Positions 1 to 29,973 of a stretch of 37,896 bases of DNA are shown one piece after another. Each line of letters opens with the position of its first letter. Positions within the stretch are counted from its first letter, which is position 1. The notes under the pieces are model-generated. The model ran no database searches. It was given only the letters and a program-made list of their open reading frames with translations, and was not told the DNA's origin. Source of the DNA: Polyangiaceae bacterium (GTDB lineage: Bacteria > Myxococcota_A > Polyangia > Polyangiales > Polyangiaceae); the NCBI GenBank assembly GCA_016933275.1, contig JAFGBI010000069.1, positions 1 to 37,896 on the forward strand. The letters run 5' to 3'. Made by a program: the position numbers and the translations under genes.

Positions 1-24
1 AGCGGTCAGCGGTCAGCGGTCAGG
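1..24 (+). repeat. Heptamer tandem repeat (GCGGTCA)x3 at window edge
   Basis: The window opens with three perfect copies of the heptamer GCGGTCA. The same heptamer, or its GCGGTCG variant, follows a CCGGC-GGA-GCCGG hairpin at 21853-21902 (minus orientation) and at 37794-37896 (plus). This is therefore probably the 3' tail of another copy whose hairpin part lies outside the window. Related but imperfect text (cgctgacgcctgatcgctgatggcc) continues to about position 68. Confidence 0.7.
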
Positions 25-128
25 TAGAACGTGGAGACCCGGATCGCTGACGCCTGATCGCTGATGGCCACGAGAACATTGAGAAATCGTCTGCCAGATC
101 CGGTCACGATCACACCGCTGAGGGACTG

Positions 129-240
129 GAGCACCGAACCGGCAGCAGAGCTCGCCCGAGGCGCCGTTGGAAACGTGCCCTCGCTGGACACGGGTCCGTC
201 CTGAGCGGCGCCGTTGCTGTTGGCAACCCGATCGGCGCTC
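129..240 (-). mobile_element. 112-bp MITE-like element, copy A
   Basis: Read on the minus strand this begins GAGCGCCGATCGGGTTGCC and ends CCGGTTCGGTGCTC, so its two ends form an imperfect inverted repeat. It closely resembles copies at 15838-15949 and 27081-27192, and all three cores are exactly 112 bp. Shared internal blocks include GTTGCCAAC near one end and a GTTTCCAACG-type segment in the middle. The middle can fold into a long imperfect hairpin. No coding capacity is apparent. Unlike the other two copies, this one has no 42-bp tail unit attached. Confidence 0.8.
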
Positions 241-4132: not shown

Positions 4133-5212
4133 ATGCGTCGTAACATTGCTTGGTTCTGCAGCGCGGTGGTGATCGGGGGCGCAACCATCGCGACTTTGGC
4201 TTGCACCGAGGCGCCCGAAGCCACCACGCCGTTCATGACGGGCGGGGTCGCCAACACGGGCGGAGCCCCCAGCGGTGGCAACATGGCGACCGGCGGTTAC
4301 ATGGCCACTGGCGGTTATGTGGTCACTGGCGGTTACATGACCACCGGTGGGTATATGGTCACTGGCGGCTACATGACGACAGGTGGCGTCGGCCTCGCGG
4401 CCACGGGCGGCGTCATGACCACCGGCGGCGTCATGACCACGGGCGGCGCCATGACCACGGGCGGCGTCATGACCACGGGCGGCGTCATGACCACGGGCGG
4501 CGTCATGACCACGGGCGGCTCCGCGCCCACGGGCGGCTCCGCGCCCACGGGCGGCTCCGAACCGACCGGTGGATCGAACCCCACAGGCGGCACTGGACCC
4601 TCGACCGGCGGCACGTCCGGGATCGTTCCGGAGGAAGCGGGAGACGCCTTCATCAAGGACTGGAACGGGAGCGGGGTGATCGGGGCATGGTTCACCTACG
4701 TGGACACCGGCGGCAGCGAGATCACACCGGACGAGGGCGATACGGTCGAGGTCACCGCCGACGGGATCTGTGTCAGCGGCACCGTGGGTGATCCCTGCGC
4801 GACCGATCCGTGCGACTACGACATCTGGGGCGCGGGCCTTGCTTTCCAGGTGTGCGGGGCTCCCGACAGCACCTCCTGGCTGCCCGATGACGTGGCCGAG
4901 GGACTGACCGCTGGCAAGGAGTACAGCGCTGGCGAATGCCCGACGAAGCTCGAGTCAATCAGCAACGTATCCTTCACCCTCGTCGGAGACGCACCGGGGC
5001 TCAGAGTCATCTACAACCTGGGTGGGTCGGGCAACTTCGGCTTCTGCGAGAGTACCTCCAAGTGTAGTGCGTCGGATGCGGAATGGCCGTGGGATGACCC
5101 CGTAGATATGAGCTCGGCCGACACGGAAGTGGTGCAGATCCAGTTCCAGATCCCTGGCCAGGCCAGCGGCTCGTTCGATTTCTGCATCACGGACCTGACA
5201 ATCACCCCATAG
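4133..5212 (+). CDS. Lipoprotein with TGG-rich hexapeptide repeats
   Basis: This 359-residue predicted lipoprotein starts at ATG 4133. The signal peptide has basic residues (MRRN), a hydrophobic core and a lipobox ending TLAC, with Cys24 as the lipidated residue. Residues about 52-160 are a low-complexity tract built on the hexapeptide TGG(V/Y)M(T/A), grading into TGGSAP units. This type of Gly/Thr-rich linker is common in myxobacterial surface lipoproteins. The remaining 190 or so residues form a folded domain with several Cys residues and a beta-rich pattern like carbohydrate-binding modules, although no specific family is recognised. A display or envelope-binding role is inferred. The longer reading frame from 4046 adds a stretch without signal-peptide character and was rejected. 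Confidence 0.82.
   Translation: MRRNIAWFCSAVVIGGATIATLACTEAPEATTPFMTGGVANTGGAPSGGNMATGGYMATGGYVVTGGYMTTGGYMVTGGYMTTGGVGLAATGGVMTTGGVMTTGGAMTTGGVMTTGGVMTTGGVMTTGGSAPTGGSAPTGGSEPTGGSNPTGGTGPSTGGTSGIVPEEAGDAFIKDWNGSGVIGAWFTYVDTGGSEITPDEGDTVEVTADGICVSGTVGDPCATDPCDYDIWGAGLAFQVCGAPDSTSWLPDDVAEGLTAGKEYSAGECPTKLESISNVSFTLVGDAPGLRVIYNLGGSGNFGFCESTSKCSASDAEWPWDDPVDMSSADTEVVQIQFQIPGQASGSFDFCITDLTITP
4405..4530 (+). repeat. 18-bp coding tandem repeat
   Basis: Near-identical 18-bp units reading ATGACCACGGGCGGCGTC follow one another inside the lipoprotein gene and encode the hexapeptide TGGVMT. Units on both sides (from 4286 and to about 4612) are more diverged. The near identity of the central units suggests recent expansion and probable length variation between strains. 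Confidence 0.85.
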
Positions 5213-15837: not shown

Positions 15838-15993
15838 GAGCACCGATCGGGTTGCCAACGGCAGCGGGGCCGCGGGAAGCGTCCCCATGCCCAGCGAGGG
15901 TACGTTTCCAACGACGCCTCGGGCGAGATCTGCCACCGGTTCGGTGCTCTAGGTTGTTGATATGACGCCGCAATCAATTTGATTGCTGCTCTC
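15838..15993 (+). mobile_element. 112-bp MITE-like element, copy B, with 42-bp tail unit
   Basis: The core spans 15838-15949 (112 bp). It begins GAGCACCGATCGGGTTGCC and ends CCGGTTCGGTGCTC, giving inverted ends GAGCACCGA(T/A)C. It is followed directly by TAGG and one copy of a 42-bp unit (15946-15987) with its own TTGAT..ATCAA dyad, then GCTCTC. It lies 66 bases upstream of the yggX start and could carry or disturb its promoter. Copies A (129-240) and C (27081-27192) match it over the whole core. Confidence 0.82.
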
Positions 15994-20613: not shown

Positions 20614-20680
20614 GGCCGGCGGAGCCGGAACCAAGCAGGCCCGCCGCGGTCAGCCGTCCGCTGGCAAGCAAGCCGCGGAG
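20614..20680 (+). repeat. Hairpin-heptamer intergenic repeat, diverged copy
   Basis: The sequence GGCCGGCGGAGCCGGAACC (hairpin CCGGC-GGA-GCCGG at 20616-20628) is followed by CAAGCAGGC and a degenerate GCGGTCAGCCGTCCGC. It lies 85 bases after the stop of the FecR/VIT/vWA gene, in the same orientation as that gene. The heptamer part is decayed compared with copies at 21853-21902 and 37794-37896. Confidence 0.65.
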
Positions 20681-21515: not shown

Positions 21516-21900
21516 GGGGAACCAGAATAGCACCACGACCGGGCTCGTCTTCGCAGCCCGGACTGCGCGCCCGGGGCTCCGTCGGGGATTGGCGACCCAA
21601 TCGGAGCCCTGGTCGGCGCCTCCGTGTGCGCTGGCCTCGGAGCGCTCCCCGTGTGTCCTCGGCGACCCGGGCAGATCCGCGACTGCTCGTGCGGACGAGG
21701 CTTGCCGGCGCGCTAGACGACCCCCCCACCCATCGACGACCGGTGGTGCCGGCGGTCCCCAAGCCCCGCCTCGCGAGCCGCCGCTCGAGGGTGCTCCGGA
21801 CCGGCAGACGCTCGCGCCGTATTGGCCATACCCGTGAGCTTCTCCGCGTCTTGCCTGACCGCTGACCGCTGATGGCCCGTTGGGTTCCGGCTCCGCCGGT
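21516..21900. other. Intergenic region between hflC and the PDZ-like gene
   Basis: This 385-bp region has no recognisable gene. Its right end is a hairpin-heptamer repeat that touches the hflC stop codon. A promoter for the PDZ-like gene is expected near 21520-21600, where AATAGC is a locally AT-richer patch, but it is not identifiable with confidence. Confidence 0.45.
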
Positions 21901-26456: not shown

Positions 26457-27080
26457 GGCCAGCCGAATACTAACGCGGAAGGTCCCGAGCGCGAGCCCGG
26501 AGGTCAGCGTGGTTTGGCAGGCCCCTCCGCGGCGACCATTGCCGGGCGGCGGCAATCCAAAGGGATTCTGAACCGGTGGTCGAGCAGGAGCAGCTGAGAG
26601 CACGGCTTCCCAGGGGAGCATGTTCAGGTGTGGGAGCAGGCACAGGGCCTGCTCCTGCTCCTCGCATGCATGGATCTTCGCCGCGAGGTCGTTCTTTCAC
26701 GTGAGCGCGCCGCGGGCGGGGATTGGTCGGTCGAGGATGGAGAACCAGCCCTCGATCTGGTTGAGCCAGGACGCATGCTCTGGCGTGAGGTGCTGGGTCC
26801 ACCGCGAGTGCTCTTCGAACCACTCGTTCACCTCGGGCGGGTCGTGCGCGGAGAGGTTCTCCATGATGAGGTCGCCCCGCCCTGGCGGACAGACGAGTTC
26901 GATGTGGTCGAGCGATTCGAGGAACGTGTCACTGTCGTGCCCCTGCGACCCGAAGCCGAACGGTCTGCCGCGGCGCACGTCGAACGCCCCCGTCCAGCAG
27001 ACAGTGCCATGGCGAACGCACTCGAACTCCCGCCGCCATGGCTGCCCGGGTCCCGTCGGGATGTCCGCGCATCGCCGCTA

Positions 27081-27276
27081 GCGCACCGATCCGGTTGCCA
27101 ACGGCAACGGTGGCGCTGGAAACGCGTCCGTGCGAGGCGAGGACGCGTTTCCAGCGCTGCCTCTGGTGAGATCTGCTGCCGGTTCAGTGCTCTAGGTCAT
27201 TGATTTGACGCAGCAATCAACCTGAGTGCTGCTCTAGGTTGTTGATTTGACGCAGCAATCAACCTGAGTGCTGCTC
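27081..27276 (+). mobile_element. 112-bp MITE-like element, copy C, with two tail units
   Basis: The core (27081-27192, 112 bp) begins GCGCACCGATCCGGTTGCC and ends CCGGTTCAGTGCTC. It is flanked by TA at 27079-27080 and 27193-27194, and the whole insert including the tail ends at TA 27277-27278. TA duplication is the hallmark of IS630/Tc1-mariner-type insertion. It interrupts an IS630-type transposase frame: the codons on either side join in frame if the insert is removed with one TA. A perfect 17-bp hairpin (27113-27129 with 27141-27157) lies in the centre. Confidence 0.85.
27113..27157. repeat. Perfect 17-bp hairpin within element copy C
   Basis: GCGCTGGAAACGCGTCC at 27113-27129 is exactly complementary to GGACGCGTTTCCAGCGC at 27141-27157, with an 11-base loop. 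Copies A and B show the same region as an imperfect hairpin with partly different bases, so folding seems to be kept while sequence drifts. Confidence 0.9.
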
Positions 27277-27279
27277 TAG
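27189..27279 (+). repeat. Tandem 42-bp tail units
   Basis: Two copies (27189-27230 and 27231-27272) differ at only two or three bases near the start (GGTCAT versus GGTTGT) and are followed by a third GCTCTAG. Each holds a dyad TTGATT-tgacgcagc-AATCAA. Element copy B carries one unit and copy A none. Confidence 0.88.
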
Positions 27280-27924
27280 CGTGCCTGAATGCCCGTCTCT
27301 TCATCAAGGACGACGCGTCCAGCGGTCCTGGCCGTCAGGATCGTCGCCTGCTCGATGCGTGCTTCGAGCCACGCTCTGGCCTTCGGATCCAGGCGCGCCA
27401 TCGGCCCGGGAGGGTCGGCCTTCGCACGTTCGATTCCAATCGCGAGGGCTGAACTCCACGAGCTTCGGCAGCAGCGTCGCATCCCCTTCGCGCACCGGCG
27501 CAGCGCGTACGGCGCGTCGGCTCCGCCATCCCGCCCCCGCGAGCCCCAGCACCACCCGCGGGCGTTTCGTCGAATGACTCCGTGCACCCGTCGACCAGCG
27601 CCACGGCGGAGAGCGGTTGCCCTCGCTGCCTCGCTACCTGGCAACCAAGCGGACGCCTGACCGCCCGCTACCACCGGCCGCCTCGTCGCGCCTGCTGCTC
27701 AAGGGTTCAAGGATCCATTGCCAACCGCCACCAACGTAGGCACGACCTCCTGGGAGGTCTTGGGCCAAATGGTCGGCGAGGGGAACAGGGCCGCCAGCGG
27801 CCAACGCCATCAGCAGAGGTGGCCGAACAACGAGCCCGAGGCCTGTTCGCCCCCGTCGGGGCGCAGCTTCCGGCCCATCGTGGCCGAGCCTCGACCCCGA
27901 GCCAACCCAAGCAGCGGTGGCGAT
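27280..27924. other. Decayed region between transposase relic and debranching gene
   Basis: Positions 27280-27400 encode the remaining N-terminal part of the IS630 transposase. From about 27400 to 27924 the frames are short, compositionally skewed and resemble nothing known; part is probably the frameshifted transposase N-terminus and the insertion-sequence end. No terminal inverted repeat of the IS was found. Confidence 0.5.
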
Positions 27925-29973
27925 TCACACCCCGAGGTCGACCACGAGTGTGCGCAGCAACTCACCGACGGCCCAGGCCTGCGCTGGCGAGCCCCGGAAC
28001 CGATGCGGCGGATCGCCATCGGCGAGCTGGGCAACCTGACCGAGCACGGGTCCGTCACCCAGGCCCGCGTCGATGCACGCGGAGAGCTCGCGACGCAGCT
28101 CCACGTCGTGTGGAGAGAGTCGCAGCGCCGCGCGTACGAAACAGCCGAGCAGGTGCGTCCAAGCAGTGCCCTGATGGTAGGAGCTGTCCCGTTCTGCCGC
28201 TCTCCCCTCGTAATGGCCACGATAGCCCGGCTCGGCCGGCGCCAAACTGCGCAGCCCTCGTGGCGTGAGGAGGTCATCCCGTGCACGACCCACGATCGCC
28301 GCCGACTGCCAGCCATCGAAGAGCTCCGGGTCGAGGGCCAGCGCGACCAGAGCGTTGGGACGAATCGATGCGTCGGCCCAGGCGTCGGCGGTCCCGCGTC
28401 CCTCGCTGATACAGTCGAACGGATACTCCGTTTCGTTGCACCAGAATCGCTCCCGGAACGCAGCGCGAGCCCGCCGCGCCGTCCCCTCGGCGGTGGCGGA
28501 CAGACTCCGATGCCCGTAGCTCGTCGCGAGCTGGGCGAGGAGATCGGCAGCCCGCGTCCAAAGGGCCTGGTACTCGATGGCCAACCCACGGCGAGGCGTG
28601 ACGATGCGGTCGCCGACTCGCGCGTCCATCCAGGTCAACGGGATGCCCTCGAACCAGTTGGCGAGGAGCCCGTCGTCGGTCATCCAGACCCCATACCGCC
28701 GCCCGCGACGGAGCCGGGCGAAGGCACGTAGGAGAGCAGGGTAGAGTCGATGTCGAACAAAATCGTCCGCCGGTCCCACCCGATCGACCAGTTCGCGGAC
28801 CGCGTTGAACAGCCAGAGCGTAGCGTCAGGCGCGCTCGGCAACGGCCCAGCCTCGGCCGAGGGGAGCCGGAACGGAAGCATCCCATCCCGCTGGCTCCCC
28901 ACGAGCGTATCGAGCACCGCCTTCGCCGCTGGTATGCGATCACGAGCGAGGAGTAGCCCGGGCAACGCGACCAGAGCGTCGCGAGTGATGACGTCGAGCA
29001 GCGGGAAACCGGCCATCACCGACGGGCGAGCGCAGTCCACGGCGCAGAACTGCTCCGCAGCCACGGAGAGCGCGCGTACGGCAGCCGGTCGCCCGGGCCC
29101 CGGATCCTGCGCGAGCTCGTACCGTTCGGTGTCGCGTAGGAGGTCCTCTGGGCTGCGGTCCGGGAGCACGCCCGCACCGGCGAGCAGGTACACCGGGACA
29201 CCGGGCTGCAGCTCCAGGTCAAAGGTCCCCGGCGTCCACATGTCCTCGACGAAGTCAGCCCCCGACTCGCGCTCATGGGTGTACTCGAAGCGACGCCACC
29301 AGTCTGGGGAACCCACGAACACCCCGGCGTGCCGGAAGATCATGGGTGGCAAGTGCGCCATCGGCTGCACCTCGACCTCGCCCTGGCGAAGATTGACGCG
29401 CTGCACCATCGCACCGTGTTCACGCATGAGGCCATGAATCGAACGGAACGGCATCAGCGGACGAACACCCAACATCGCGGGCTCGGCGCCATACCAAGTG
29501 TACGACAAGGTGACGGCGTTCCACCCGCGGACGAGCGCAATCCGCCGTTCGAAGCGAGTCCCGCCGAGATCGTAGTACCAGTGCGGCAGAGGGTCCTGAC
29601 AGAACCGCCGCAGGTTGCGGTAGCCGGGCGTCGGCGCGATGCTGGGAAACTGGTGGGTCGAGAGCCGATAGGTCTTGCCCGCGGTCGCGAGCACCATCTC
29701 CCCATGGCTTAGCATCACGTAGCGGTCCAGCGGCGGATTCAGCGCCGCGACCAGGATCCCGTGACTCCGACGGGTGTGCATCAGGGCGACGGTGCTCATC
29801 GCATAGGCACCTGCGCCGTTGGTGTGCAACCACTCGTGCTGCACCGCGGGTTCGAGCTCTCCGAAGGTCTCCACGCAGCGGAAAGGCCCGTCGCGCAACC
29901 CGATGCCGTCTGATGAAACGGCGAGCGGCCGCACGCTGTCCGGTCCCGTGTCGTCGTGACGATCGTCGGTCAT
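27925..29973 (-). CDS. Glycogen debranching-type amylo-alpha-1,6-glucosidase
   Basis: This 682-residue protein has the bacterial and archaeal GDE_N plus GDE_C architecture. The N-terminal beta domain shows EWLHTNGAGAYAMSTV, RRSHGILVAAL and PLDRYVMLSHGE. The C-terminal (alpha/alpha)6 barrel has DATLWLFNAV, MTDDGLLANW, PLTWMDARVGD with the acidic residue expected at the active site, QALWTRAADLL, and SIRPNALVALAL. Family members hydrolyse alpha-1,6 branch points of glycogen-like glucans in the cytoplasm, after the outer chains have been shortened. The ATG overlaps the xseA stop (ATGA) and is preceded by GGGAGAG, so it is translated from the xseA message. No other glycogen genes are in the window. 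Confidence 0.92.
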   Translation of the reverse strand: MTDDRHDDTGPDSVRPLAVSSDGIGLRDGPFRCVETFGELEPAVQHEWLHTNGAGAYAMSTVALMHTRRSHGILVAALNPPLDRYVMLSHGEMVLATAGKTYRLSTHQFPSIAPTPGYRNLRRFCQDPLPHWYYDLGGTRFERRIALVRGWNAVTLSYTWYGAEPAMLGVRPLMPFRSIHGLMREHGAMVQRVNLRQGEVEVQPMAHLPPMIFRHAGVFVGSPDWWRRFEYTHERESGADFVEDMWTPGTFDLELQPGVPVYLLAGAGVLPDRSPEDLLRDTERYELAQDPGPGRPAAVRALSVAAEQFCAVDCARPSVMAGFPLLDVITRDALVALPGLLLARDRIPAAKAVLDTLVGSQRDGMLPFRLPSAEAGPLPSAPDATLWLFNAVRELVDRVGPADDFVRHRLYPALLRAFARLRRGRRYGVWMTDDGLLANWFEGIPLTWMDARVGDRIVTPRRGLAIEYQALWTRAADLLAQLATSYGHRSLSATAEGTARRARAAFRERFWCNETEYPFDCISEGRGTADAWADASIRPNALVALALDPELFDGWQSAAIVGRARDDLLTPRGLRSLAPAEPGYRGHYEGRAAERDSSYHQGTAWTHLLGCFVRAALRLSPHDVELRRELSACIDAGLGDGPVLGQVAQLADGDPPHRFRGSPAQAWAVGELLRTLVVDLGV

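What the first reader, a model, noticed from the sequence alone, without database searches (positions are those of the whole stretch)
26640..27400. MITE inserted in frame within an IS630 transposase at TA
The transposase reading frame stops at DEETGIQAR and resumes at RRCADIPTGPG on the other side of element copy C, with TA dinucleotides at both junctions. Removing 27079-27276 or the equivalent restores the codon phase. IS630-family enzymes duplicate TA on insertion, so an IS630-type enzyme, possibly this one, may have mobilised the element. That would link the element to its likely source of transposase.
Basis: partly seen in the sequence, partly recalled or inferred. Interest (0 to 1): 0.7.

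Follow-up and report, generated by a model that had tools for sequence, protein, structure and literature searches.

The report
IS1182-type MITE in dead transposase
A 196-base mini-transposon, from a family with several hundred copies in this bacterium's genome, sits at a break in the remnant of an IS630 transposase gene, but its ends match a different transposon family, IS1182, whose enzyme is the likely mover.

Summary
A 196-bp element (27081-27276) lies between CTAG copies (27078-27081, 27276-27279) that contain the reported TA. Subtracting 198 bp keeps codon phase, and homologous IS630 transposases have exactly two residues (LE) there. But those codons read CGC-TAG here, so the gene already had, or later gained, an in-frame stop; upstream only about 11 residues resemble IS630. 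The target is a remnant.

The proposed IS630 link is not supported. Probing with the element's own three end sequences, 21 of 29 IS1182-family loci in relatives (9 of 13 genomes) matched at both ends (at most 5 of 17 mismatches), against 0 of 27 IS630 loci. A 607-bp IS1182 deletion derivative with both repeats exists. A published IS1182-type MITE (MITEPye1) has 4-bp repeats. IS630 elements here also sit at CTAG, so TA alone cannot identify the enzyme.

The family is abundant (414 left-end matches in 8.25 Mb; copies broken at contig ends may count twice), yet no IS1182 transposase was found in the held assembly. Best filed as a new, high-copy member of a known kind (IS1182-type MITE). Mobilisation in trans is inferred, not shown.

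The parts
27081..27276 (+). Element copy C, 196 bp (194 bp if CTAG is counted wholly as target)
   Evidence: Coordinates and ends; two other 196-bp copies (L002, L003); family counts
27081..27097 (+). Left inverted repeat GCGCACCGATCCGGTTG (commonest family form GAGCACCGATCAGGTTG)
   Evidence: IS1182 5' ends are within 1 mismatch of an element end in 14 of 29 loci
27260..27276 (-). Right inverted repeat, reverse complement GAGCAGCACTCAGGTTG
27078..27081 (.). CTAG flank (direct-repeat copy; contains the reported TA 27079-27080)
27276..27279 (.). CTAG flank (direct-repeat copy; contains the reported TA 27277-27278)
   Evidence: CTAG on both sides in 44 of 77 parsed copies
27081..27192 (+). 112-bp core with a ~21-bp central hairpin and its own right repeat (reverse complement GAGCACTGAACCGG)
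27193..27234 (+). 42-bp module, first copy (starts TAG, ends CTC)
27235..27276 (+). 42-bp module, second copy
26697..27077 (-). C-terminal half of an IS630-type (DDE_3) transposase remnant, RRCADIPTGPG... to stop
27279..27314 (-). Short upstream piece VVLDEETGIQAR, matching IS630 over 8 of 11 residues
15838..15991 (+). Element copy B, 154-bp form (core + one 42-bp module)
129..240 (-). Element copy A, 112-bp core-only form

Best explanation
The insert is a non-autonomous, IS1182-type miniature element (MITE) that likely entered a CTAG site in an already decaying IS630 transposase gene and was probably moved in trans by an IS1182-family transposase. Shown: element boundaries, CTAG on both sides, conserved codon phase, and inverted repeats matching IS1182 elements in relatives. 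Inferred: that the CTAG repeat is a 4-bp target duplication, that an IS1182 transposase cuts and joins at these ends, and that the IS630 gene was dead before the insertion.
For: IS1182 elements: L090 (G019) has a 553-aa ORF between CTA|GAGGACCGATCAGGTTG and CTA|GAACGCCGAACATGTTG, ~1.73 kb. L183 (G107) has GAGCGCCGATCAGGTTG and GAGCGCCGAATAGGTTG. The 7 fetched G122 copies and the 4 fetched G123 copies all have CTAG on both sides, mostly in different contexts (L174 and L176 share one flank). Control: probing with the element's three own ends, 21 of 29 IS1182 loci (9 of 13 genomes) against 0 of 27 IS630 loci matched at both ends with <=5 of 17 mismatches; 24 of 29 (12 of 13 genomes) against 0 of 27 at one end or both. 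A 607-bp element in G051 (L061) has both repeats, CTAG on both sides and an IS1182 N-terminal fragment (69.2 bits). The 112-bp core keeps the 5'/3' difference of the IS (CCGAT left, CCGAA right). The end pattern occurs in 26 of 59 genomes searched, own genome included; 14 of the 59 have 4 or more matches. 44 of 77 parsed own-genome copies have CTAG on both sides, 63 of 77 on at least one. Literature passages: MITEPye1, 159 bp, 18-bp IS1182-like repeats, 4-bp direct repeats (PMC11578231); the table row of ISPse1 (IS1182) reads 16/16 and 4, which I take as repeat length and duplication (PMC3281130).
Against: No IS1182 transposase was found in the window's own assembly (NF033551: 0 of 10 candidates; L090 protein: 0, 13 of 30 candidates scored; PF05598: 0 of 9); the assembly is 93% complete and broken at repeats. 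No orthologous empty site was found; one attempt for an IS1182 copy failed. 33 of 77 copies lack CTAG on one or both sides, and only 2 of them show identical non-CTAG repeats, so duplication is supported but not proven. In the forms with a 42-bp module, the terminal right end (GAGCAGCAATCAGG) is of the 5' type, unlike the 3' end of the IS. 8 of 29 IS1182 loci fail the both-ends test, and the 29 include sets of near-identical copies. 12 of the 26 genomes with the end pattern have only 1-2 matches, and 4 of 59 genomes have 1-2 matches to the reversed control. IS1272, placed in the IS1182 family, is reported to replace inverted repeats without target duplication (PMC5678879). Some IS630 ends begin GTGCACCG (L132, L138) or GCGCACCG (L137): each matches 7 of the first 8 bases of the family form, and L137 matches all of copy C's first 8, though the match ends there.
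Confidence: 0.84

Rival explanations
1. An IS630-family enzyme, possibly the one interrupted, mobilised the element at TA, as for IS630-driven MITEs.
For: TA at both ends; ISY100, an IS630-family element, inserts almost only at TA and duplicates it, and a title in that paper's reference list cites IS630 preference for TA in CTAG (passages of PMC2170065); several IS630 relatives here also sit at CTAG, and L132, L137 and L138 have ends beginning GTGCACCG or GCGCACCG.
Against: 0 of 27 IS630 loci match the element's ends within 5 of 17 mismatches, closest 7; likely ends near the closest homologues of this transposase read CTAGT(T/G)CC..CCCGGC(A/C)GAAGTTT (L121, L122); no such end was found around the window copy (best 9 of 23 mismatches); DDE_3 finds only 3 pieces in the genome, all partial.
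Confidence: 0.05
2. An IS5-family enzyme with CTAG target mobilised it, as proposed for MITEPsy1 and ISPsy2.
For: MITEPsy1 inserts at CTAG or YTAA with 4-bp duplication (passages of PMC3189936).
Against: MITEPsy1 ends printed there (GGAAGGTCTGAAAAAGCC) do not resemble GAGCACCGATCAGGTTG, while IS1182 ends do. IS5 transposases without a DUF772 domain were not searched in the own genome.
Confidence: 0.03
3. Not a simple insertion: the element sits at the border of an IS630 fragment, joined to unrelated DNA by an older rearrangement, and the DEETGIQA match is a short chance or eroded similarity.
For: Only 8 of 11 residues match on that side, for 1 of 5 homologues (E 0.087), and nothing further upstream; in L033 another core copy also abuts an IS630 piece, with a recA-like gene on the other side.
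Against: The match lies exactly at the homologous position, in phase, on the right strand, with the expected two-residue gap, and both flanks carry CTAG.
Confidence: 0.12

Closest known systems
MITEPye1 of Paracoccus yeei (IS1182-type MITE; PMC11578231, passages seen)
   Same: 159 bp, no ORF, inverted repeats like IS1182 elements, 4-bp direct repeats, proposed trans-mobilisation
   Different: 1-3 copies per chromosome there against several hundred here; no 42-bp module mentioned in the passages seen; sequence not compared
IS1182-family insertion sequences (NF033551), e.g. L090, L172-L183
   Same: Closely similar end sequences and CTAG flanks
   Different: The element is 112-196 bp and has no transposase gene
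MITEPsy1/ISPsy2 (IS5 family; PMC3189936, passages seen)
   Same: Small element, CTAG target duplicated
   Different: Unrelated inverted repeats and transposase family
RUP elements and IS630-Spn1 of pneumococcus (recalled, from no call)
   Different: Ends here match IS1182, not IS630

Membership tests
IS1182-type MITE | Inverted repeats matching IS1182-family elements | tested here: met
   21 of 29 IS1182 loci (9 of 13 genomes) match at both ends, 0 of 27 IS630 loci; oriented ends
IS1182-type MITE | Short, no transposase gene | tested here: met
   112-, 154- and 196-bp forms, too short for a transposase
IS1182-type MITE | Many dispersed copies | tested here: met
   414 left-end and 344 right-end (module) matches, 0 in reversed controls; copies broken at contig ends may count twice
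IS1182-type MITE | 4-bp target duplication | tested here: inconclusive
   CTAG on both sides in 44 of 77 copies and a 198-bp in-phase insert against homologues; no true empty site found
IS1182-type MITE | Mobilised in trans by an IS1182 transposase | not testable with these tools
   No such transposase found in the held assembly
IS630-type MITE | Inverted repeats matching IS630-family elements | tested here: not met
   0 of 27 loci within 5 of 17 mismatches at either end
IS630-type MITE | TA duplication | tested here: inconclusive
   TA is inside the CTAG repeat; 2-bp and 4-bp readings give the same 198 bp
IS630 transposase (target gene) | DDE_3 domain | tested here: met
   48.3 bits against cut-off 28.6
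IS630 transposase (target gene) | Intact full-length gene | tested here: not met
   NF033545 63 bits against cut-off 100; TAG at the site, second stop, no N-terminal homology found

The most novel reading that the evidence does not exclude
An orphan IS1182-type MITE has been amplified to several hundred copies in a genome that no longer holds its transposase, as a modular element: a hairpin core plus exchangeable 42-bp hairpin modules, each bounded by CTAG. Boundary CTAGs then act as fresh targets, so the element stacks onto itself and grows new composite forms such as the 196-bp copy here.
Probability: 0.3. Interest if true: 0.55.

Novelty: new member of a known kind. Interest (0 to 1): 0.35.

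Why it matters
It corrects the link to IS630: a TA (CTAG) flank inside an IS630 gene does not identify the mobilising enzyme, because two transposase families share that target in these bacteria. It assigns a very abundant repeat in this genome to IS1182-type elements and gives intact candidate partners in relatives (G019, G122, G123, G107), so trans-mobilisation can be tested directly. The one IS1182-type MITE I found in print, in the searches named under Tried and rejected, is low-copy.

Tried and rejected
IS630 as source: ends compared and rejected. RNA family: the 3 Rfam hits in 26500-28000 (E up to 0.1) are microRNA models matching the hairpin, all far below their gathering scores; rejected. 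N-side piece as a known protein: 4 plasmid matches at E 2-9 and no protein match. Empty site for an IS1182 copy: 2 of 6 genomes matched, one being the copy itself and one weak. Empty sites from a second repeat family beside the element: 10 sites seen but no clean empty and filled pair. Frame span across 12 IS1182 loci as a test of duplication: the version with one TA kept gave the longest frame in 6 of 12, where 4 would be expected by chance; only L177 (321 against 42 and 195) is striking, and long frames are common in this GC-rich DNA, so I do not use it. First count of own-genome copies: 88 parsed entries contained 11 reverse misreads of the same copies; 77 remain. Literature searches: IS1182+CTAG, IS1182+MITE, IS630+MITE+CTAG, IS1182 family+inverted repeats+target site duplication, miniature inverted-repeat+myxobacteria, IS1182+palindromic (12 of 47 listed), IS1182+non-autonomous, MITE+Sorangium cellulosum; no listing shows this element. 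They cover only the held open-licence library.

Full report
What is there. The window is contig 191 of an 8.25-Mb draft genome of 464 contigs. At 27081-27276 lies a 196-bp element with CTAG on both sides (27078-27081 and 27276-27279). It consists of a 112-bp core and two 42-bp modules, each boundary being CTAG. The core folds into a hairpin of about 21 bp; folded as single-stranded DNA the CTAG-to-CTAG stretch gives -57.7 kcal/mol against -34.65 +/- 3.32 for shuffles, z -6.9. Two other copies are in the window: 129-240 (minus, core only) and 15838-15991 (core plus one module).

Copy number. The left-end pattern (22 bp, up to 3 mismatches) has 414 matches in the genome and the right-end (module) pattern (35 bp, up to 3 mismatches) 344, with 0 in the reversed controls. 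The assembly breaks at these repeats: 14 of the 60 stretches that I fetched around left ends ran into a contig end, and I had passed over many hits near contig starts, so one copy can be counted on two contigs; I therefore say several hundred. I parsed the window and 91 own-genome loci. The script gave 88 entries; 11 were reverse misreads overlapping a better entry and were dropped, leaving 77: 14 core only, 60 with one and 3 with two modules. CTAG is on both sides in 44 of 77 and on at least one in 63 of 77. Most of these loci were chosen for good left ends, so the sample is biased to intact copies.

The transposase. The C-half (26697-27077, minus) is an IS630-type DDE_3 domain. A family-wide search found matches in 30 of 108 genomes, own genome included; the best other one, L121, is 71% identical at protein level and 77.6% in DNA right up to the junction. 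The five relatives examined (L121-L125) have the two residues LE between the residues that flank the insert here. The window has CGC-TAG in that place once one CTAG is counted, so phase is kept but the codon that is E in relatives is a stop. L121 and L124 have CTCGAG there, so CTAG is one base away from their CGAG. On the upstream side only VVLDEETGIQA resembles IS630 (8 of 11, E 0.087, reported for L122 alone), and no IS630 similarity was found beyond it. The likely history (inferred) is a decaying IS630 gene in which a mutation created CTAG, then an insertion.

Which enzyme. I first looked for the element's ends around IS630 pieces. None of the 16 loci in relatives L074-L089 had them at CTAG; one (L085) had a 4-mismatch match elsewhere. 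The end pattern occurs in 26 of 59 genomes searched, own genome included; 14 have 4 or more matches, the other 12 have 1-2, and 4 of the 59 have 1-2 matches to the reversed control, so single matches may be chance. One carrier, L061, is a 607-bp element with both repeats and CTAG on both sides that encodes an N-terminal piece of an IS1182 transposase (NF033551 69.2 bits, DUF772 31.8 bits). A search for IS1182 transposases in the 14 genomes then gave L090, an intact 553-aa gene between matching repeats at CTAG. The L090 protein matched 32 of 108 genomes of the family but not the own genome. The copies fetched from G122 (7) and G123 (4) have the same kind of ends and CTAG on both sides; L174 and L176 share one flank, the other contexts differ.

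Control. Using only the element's three own end sequences and requiring TA in front, I scored both sides of transposase genes. IS1182: 30 distinct loci given, 29 usable (L155 lacks flank), from 13 genomes; 21 matched at both ends with at most 5 of 17 mismatches (9 of 13 genomes), 24 at one or both (12 of 13), 15 with at most 2 at one end. Many of these are near-identical copies in one genome, hence the count by genome. IS630: 36 loci given, 27 usable; 0 at any end, the closest having 7 mismatches (the IS630 loci not counted lacked a usable homologous frame or 200 bp of flank). An earlier run with a wider set of end variants, some taken from the IS itself, gave 25 of 33 against 0 of 28; it held four IS1182 loci and one IS630 locus twice and is the less strict test. 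Loci that fail: L187, L188, L189 and L191 (6-7 mismatches, still starting CTAGAG), L161 at both ends, L162 at the 5' end (its 3' side has 1 mismatch), L149 and L150 at the 3' end (L150 has a similar 3' end without CTA).

Against this reading. The own genome shows no IS1182 transposase (in one search only 13 of 30 candidates were scored), so the partner is lost, missing from the assembly, or was never resident. I found no orthologous empty site. Non-CTAG flanks rarely agree on the two sides (2 identical cases), which fits later mutation but does not prove duplication. The core alone has 5'-type (CCGAT) and 3'-type (CCGAA) ends like the IS, but in the commoner 154-bp form the outer right end is of the 5' type, so which end pair is used is open. 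IS630 ends in L132, L137 and L138 share the first 7-8 bases with the element. IS1272, described as an IS1182-family member, is reported to replace inverted repeats with no duplication (PMC5678879: abstract and passages).

Known kinds. An IS1182-type MITE is already described: MITEPye1, 159 bp, 18-bp repeats, 4-bp direct repeats, 1-3 copies per chromosome (PMC11578231: search listing and passages). The table row of a captured IS1182 element, ISPse1, reads 16/16 and 4 (PMC3281130: passages; I read these as repeat length and duplication). ISPsy36 (IS1182) has GGCC repeats as target (PMC8027508: passages). CTAG as a duplicated target is also known from the IS5-related MITEPsy1 (PMC3189936: passages), and the IS630-family ISY100 uses TA (PMC2170065: passages). 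So the element is a new member of a known kind, unusual in copy number and modular build. Its likely mechanism is transposition in trans by an IS1182 transposase at CTAG; that step is inferred.

Noticed in passing
window 1-128; L003, L005, L015, L025, L027, L033, L043: A second dispersed repeat (AGTCCC..GATCTTGACCGGATCTGGCA...CTACCTGACCGCTGACC): 10 sites in the window and 32 loci. In 4 of the 10 (window 1-128, L003, L005, L043) it begins directly at an end of the element. It may be another mobile repeat that shares the CTAG/TAG boundary.
   Followed up: partly
L033 1398-1509: A core-only copy abuts another IS630 piece (LVCDNVSVHHG...), with a recA-like gene on the other side; so 2 of the 3 IS630 pieces found in this genome touch an element copy.
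   Followed up: partly
L004/L010 (C278:12797-13114), L238 345-654: Two complete 154-bp elements lie head to tail sharing one CTAG (or CTGG in L238), as if the boundary had been used as a new target or duplicated.
   Followed up: no
L061 1501-2108 (G051:C218): 607-bp IS1182 deletion derivative with both repeats, an intermediate between the IS and a MITE.
   Followed up: yes
L126, L128, L132, L134, L138: IS630-family loci of these relatives also have CTAGT... on both sides, so two transposase families seem to share the same target tetranucleotide.
   Followed up: partly
L091 1468-2950 and 3038-3195 (G009:C243): A transposase matching NF033551 but too unlike L090 to be scored beside it is followed within about 100 bp by an element copy.
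   Followed up: no
window 4258-4605: Array of 18-bp tandem repeats (CGGCGTCATGACCACGGG type), about 350 bp long.
   Followed up: no
window 20616-20658 and 21857-21899: 43-nt inverted repeats, 84% complementary, 1198 nt apart, containing CCGGCGGAGCCGGAACC, also seen beside the second repeat family.
   Followed up: no
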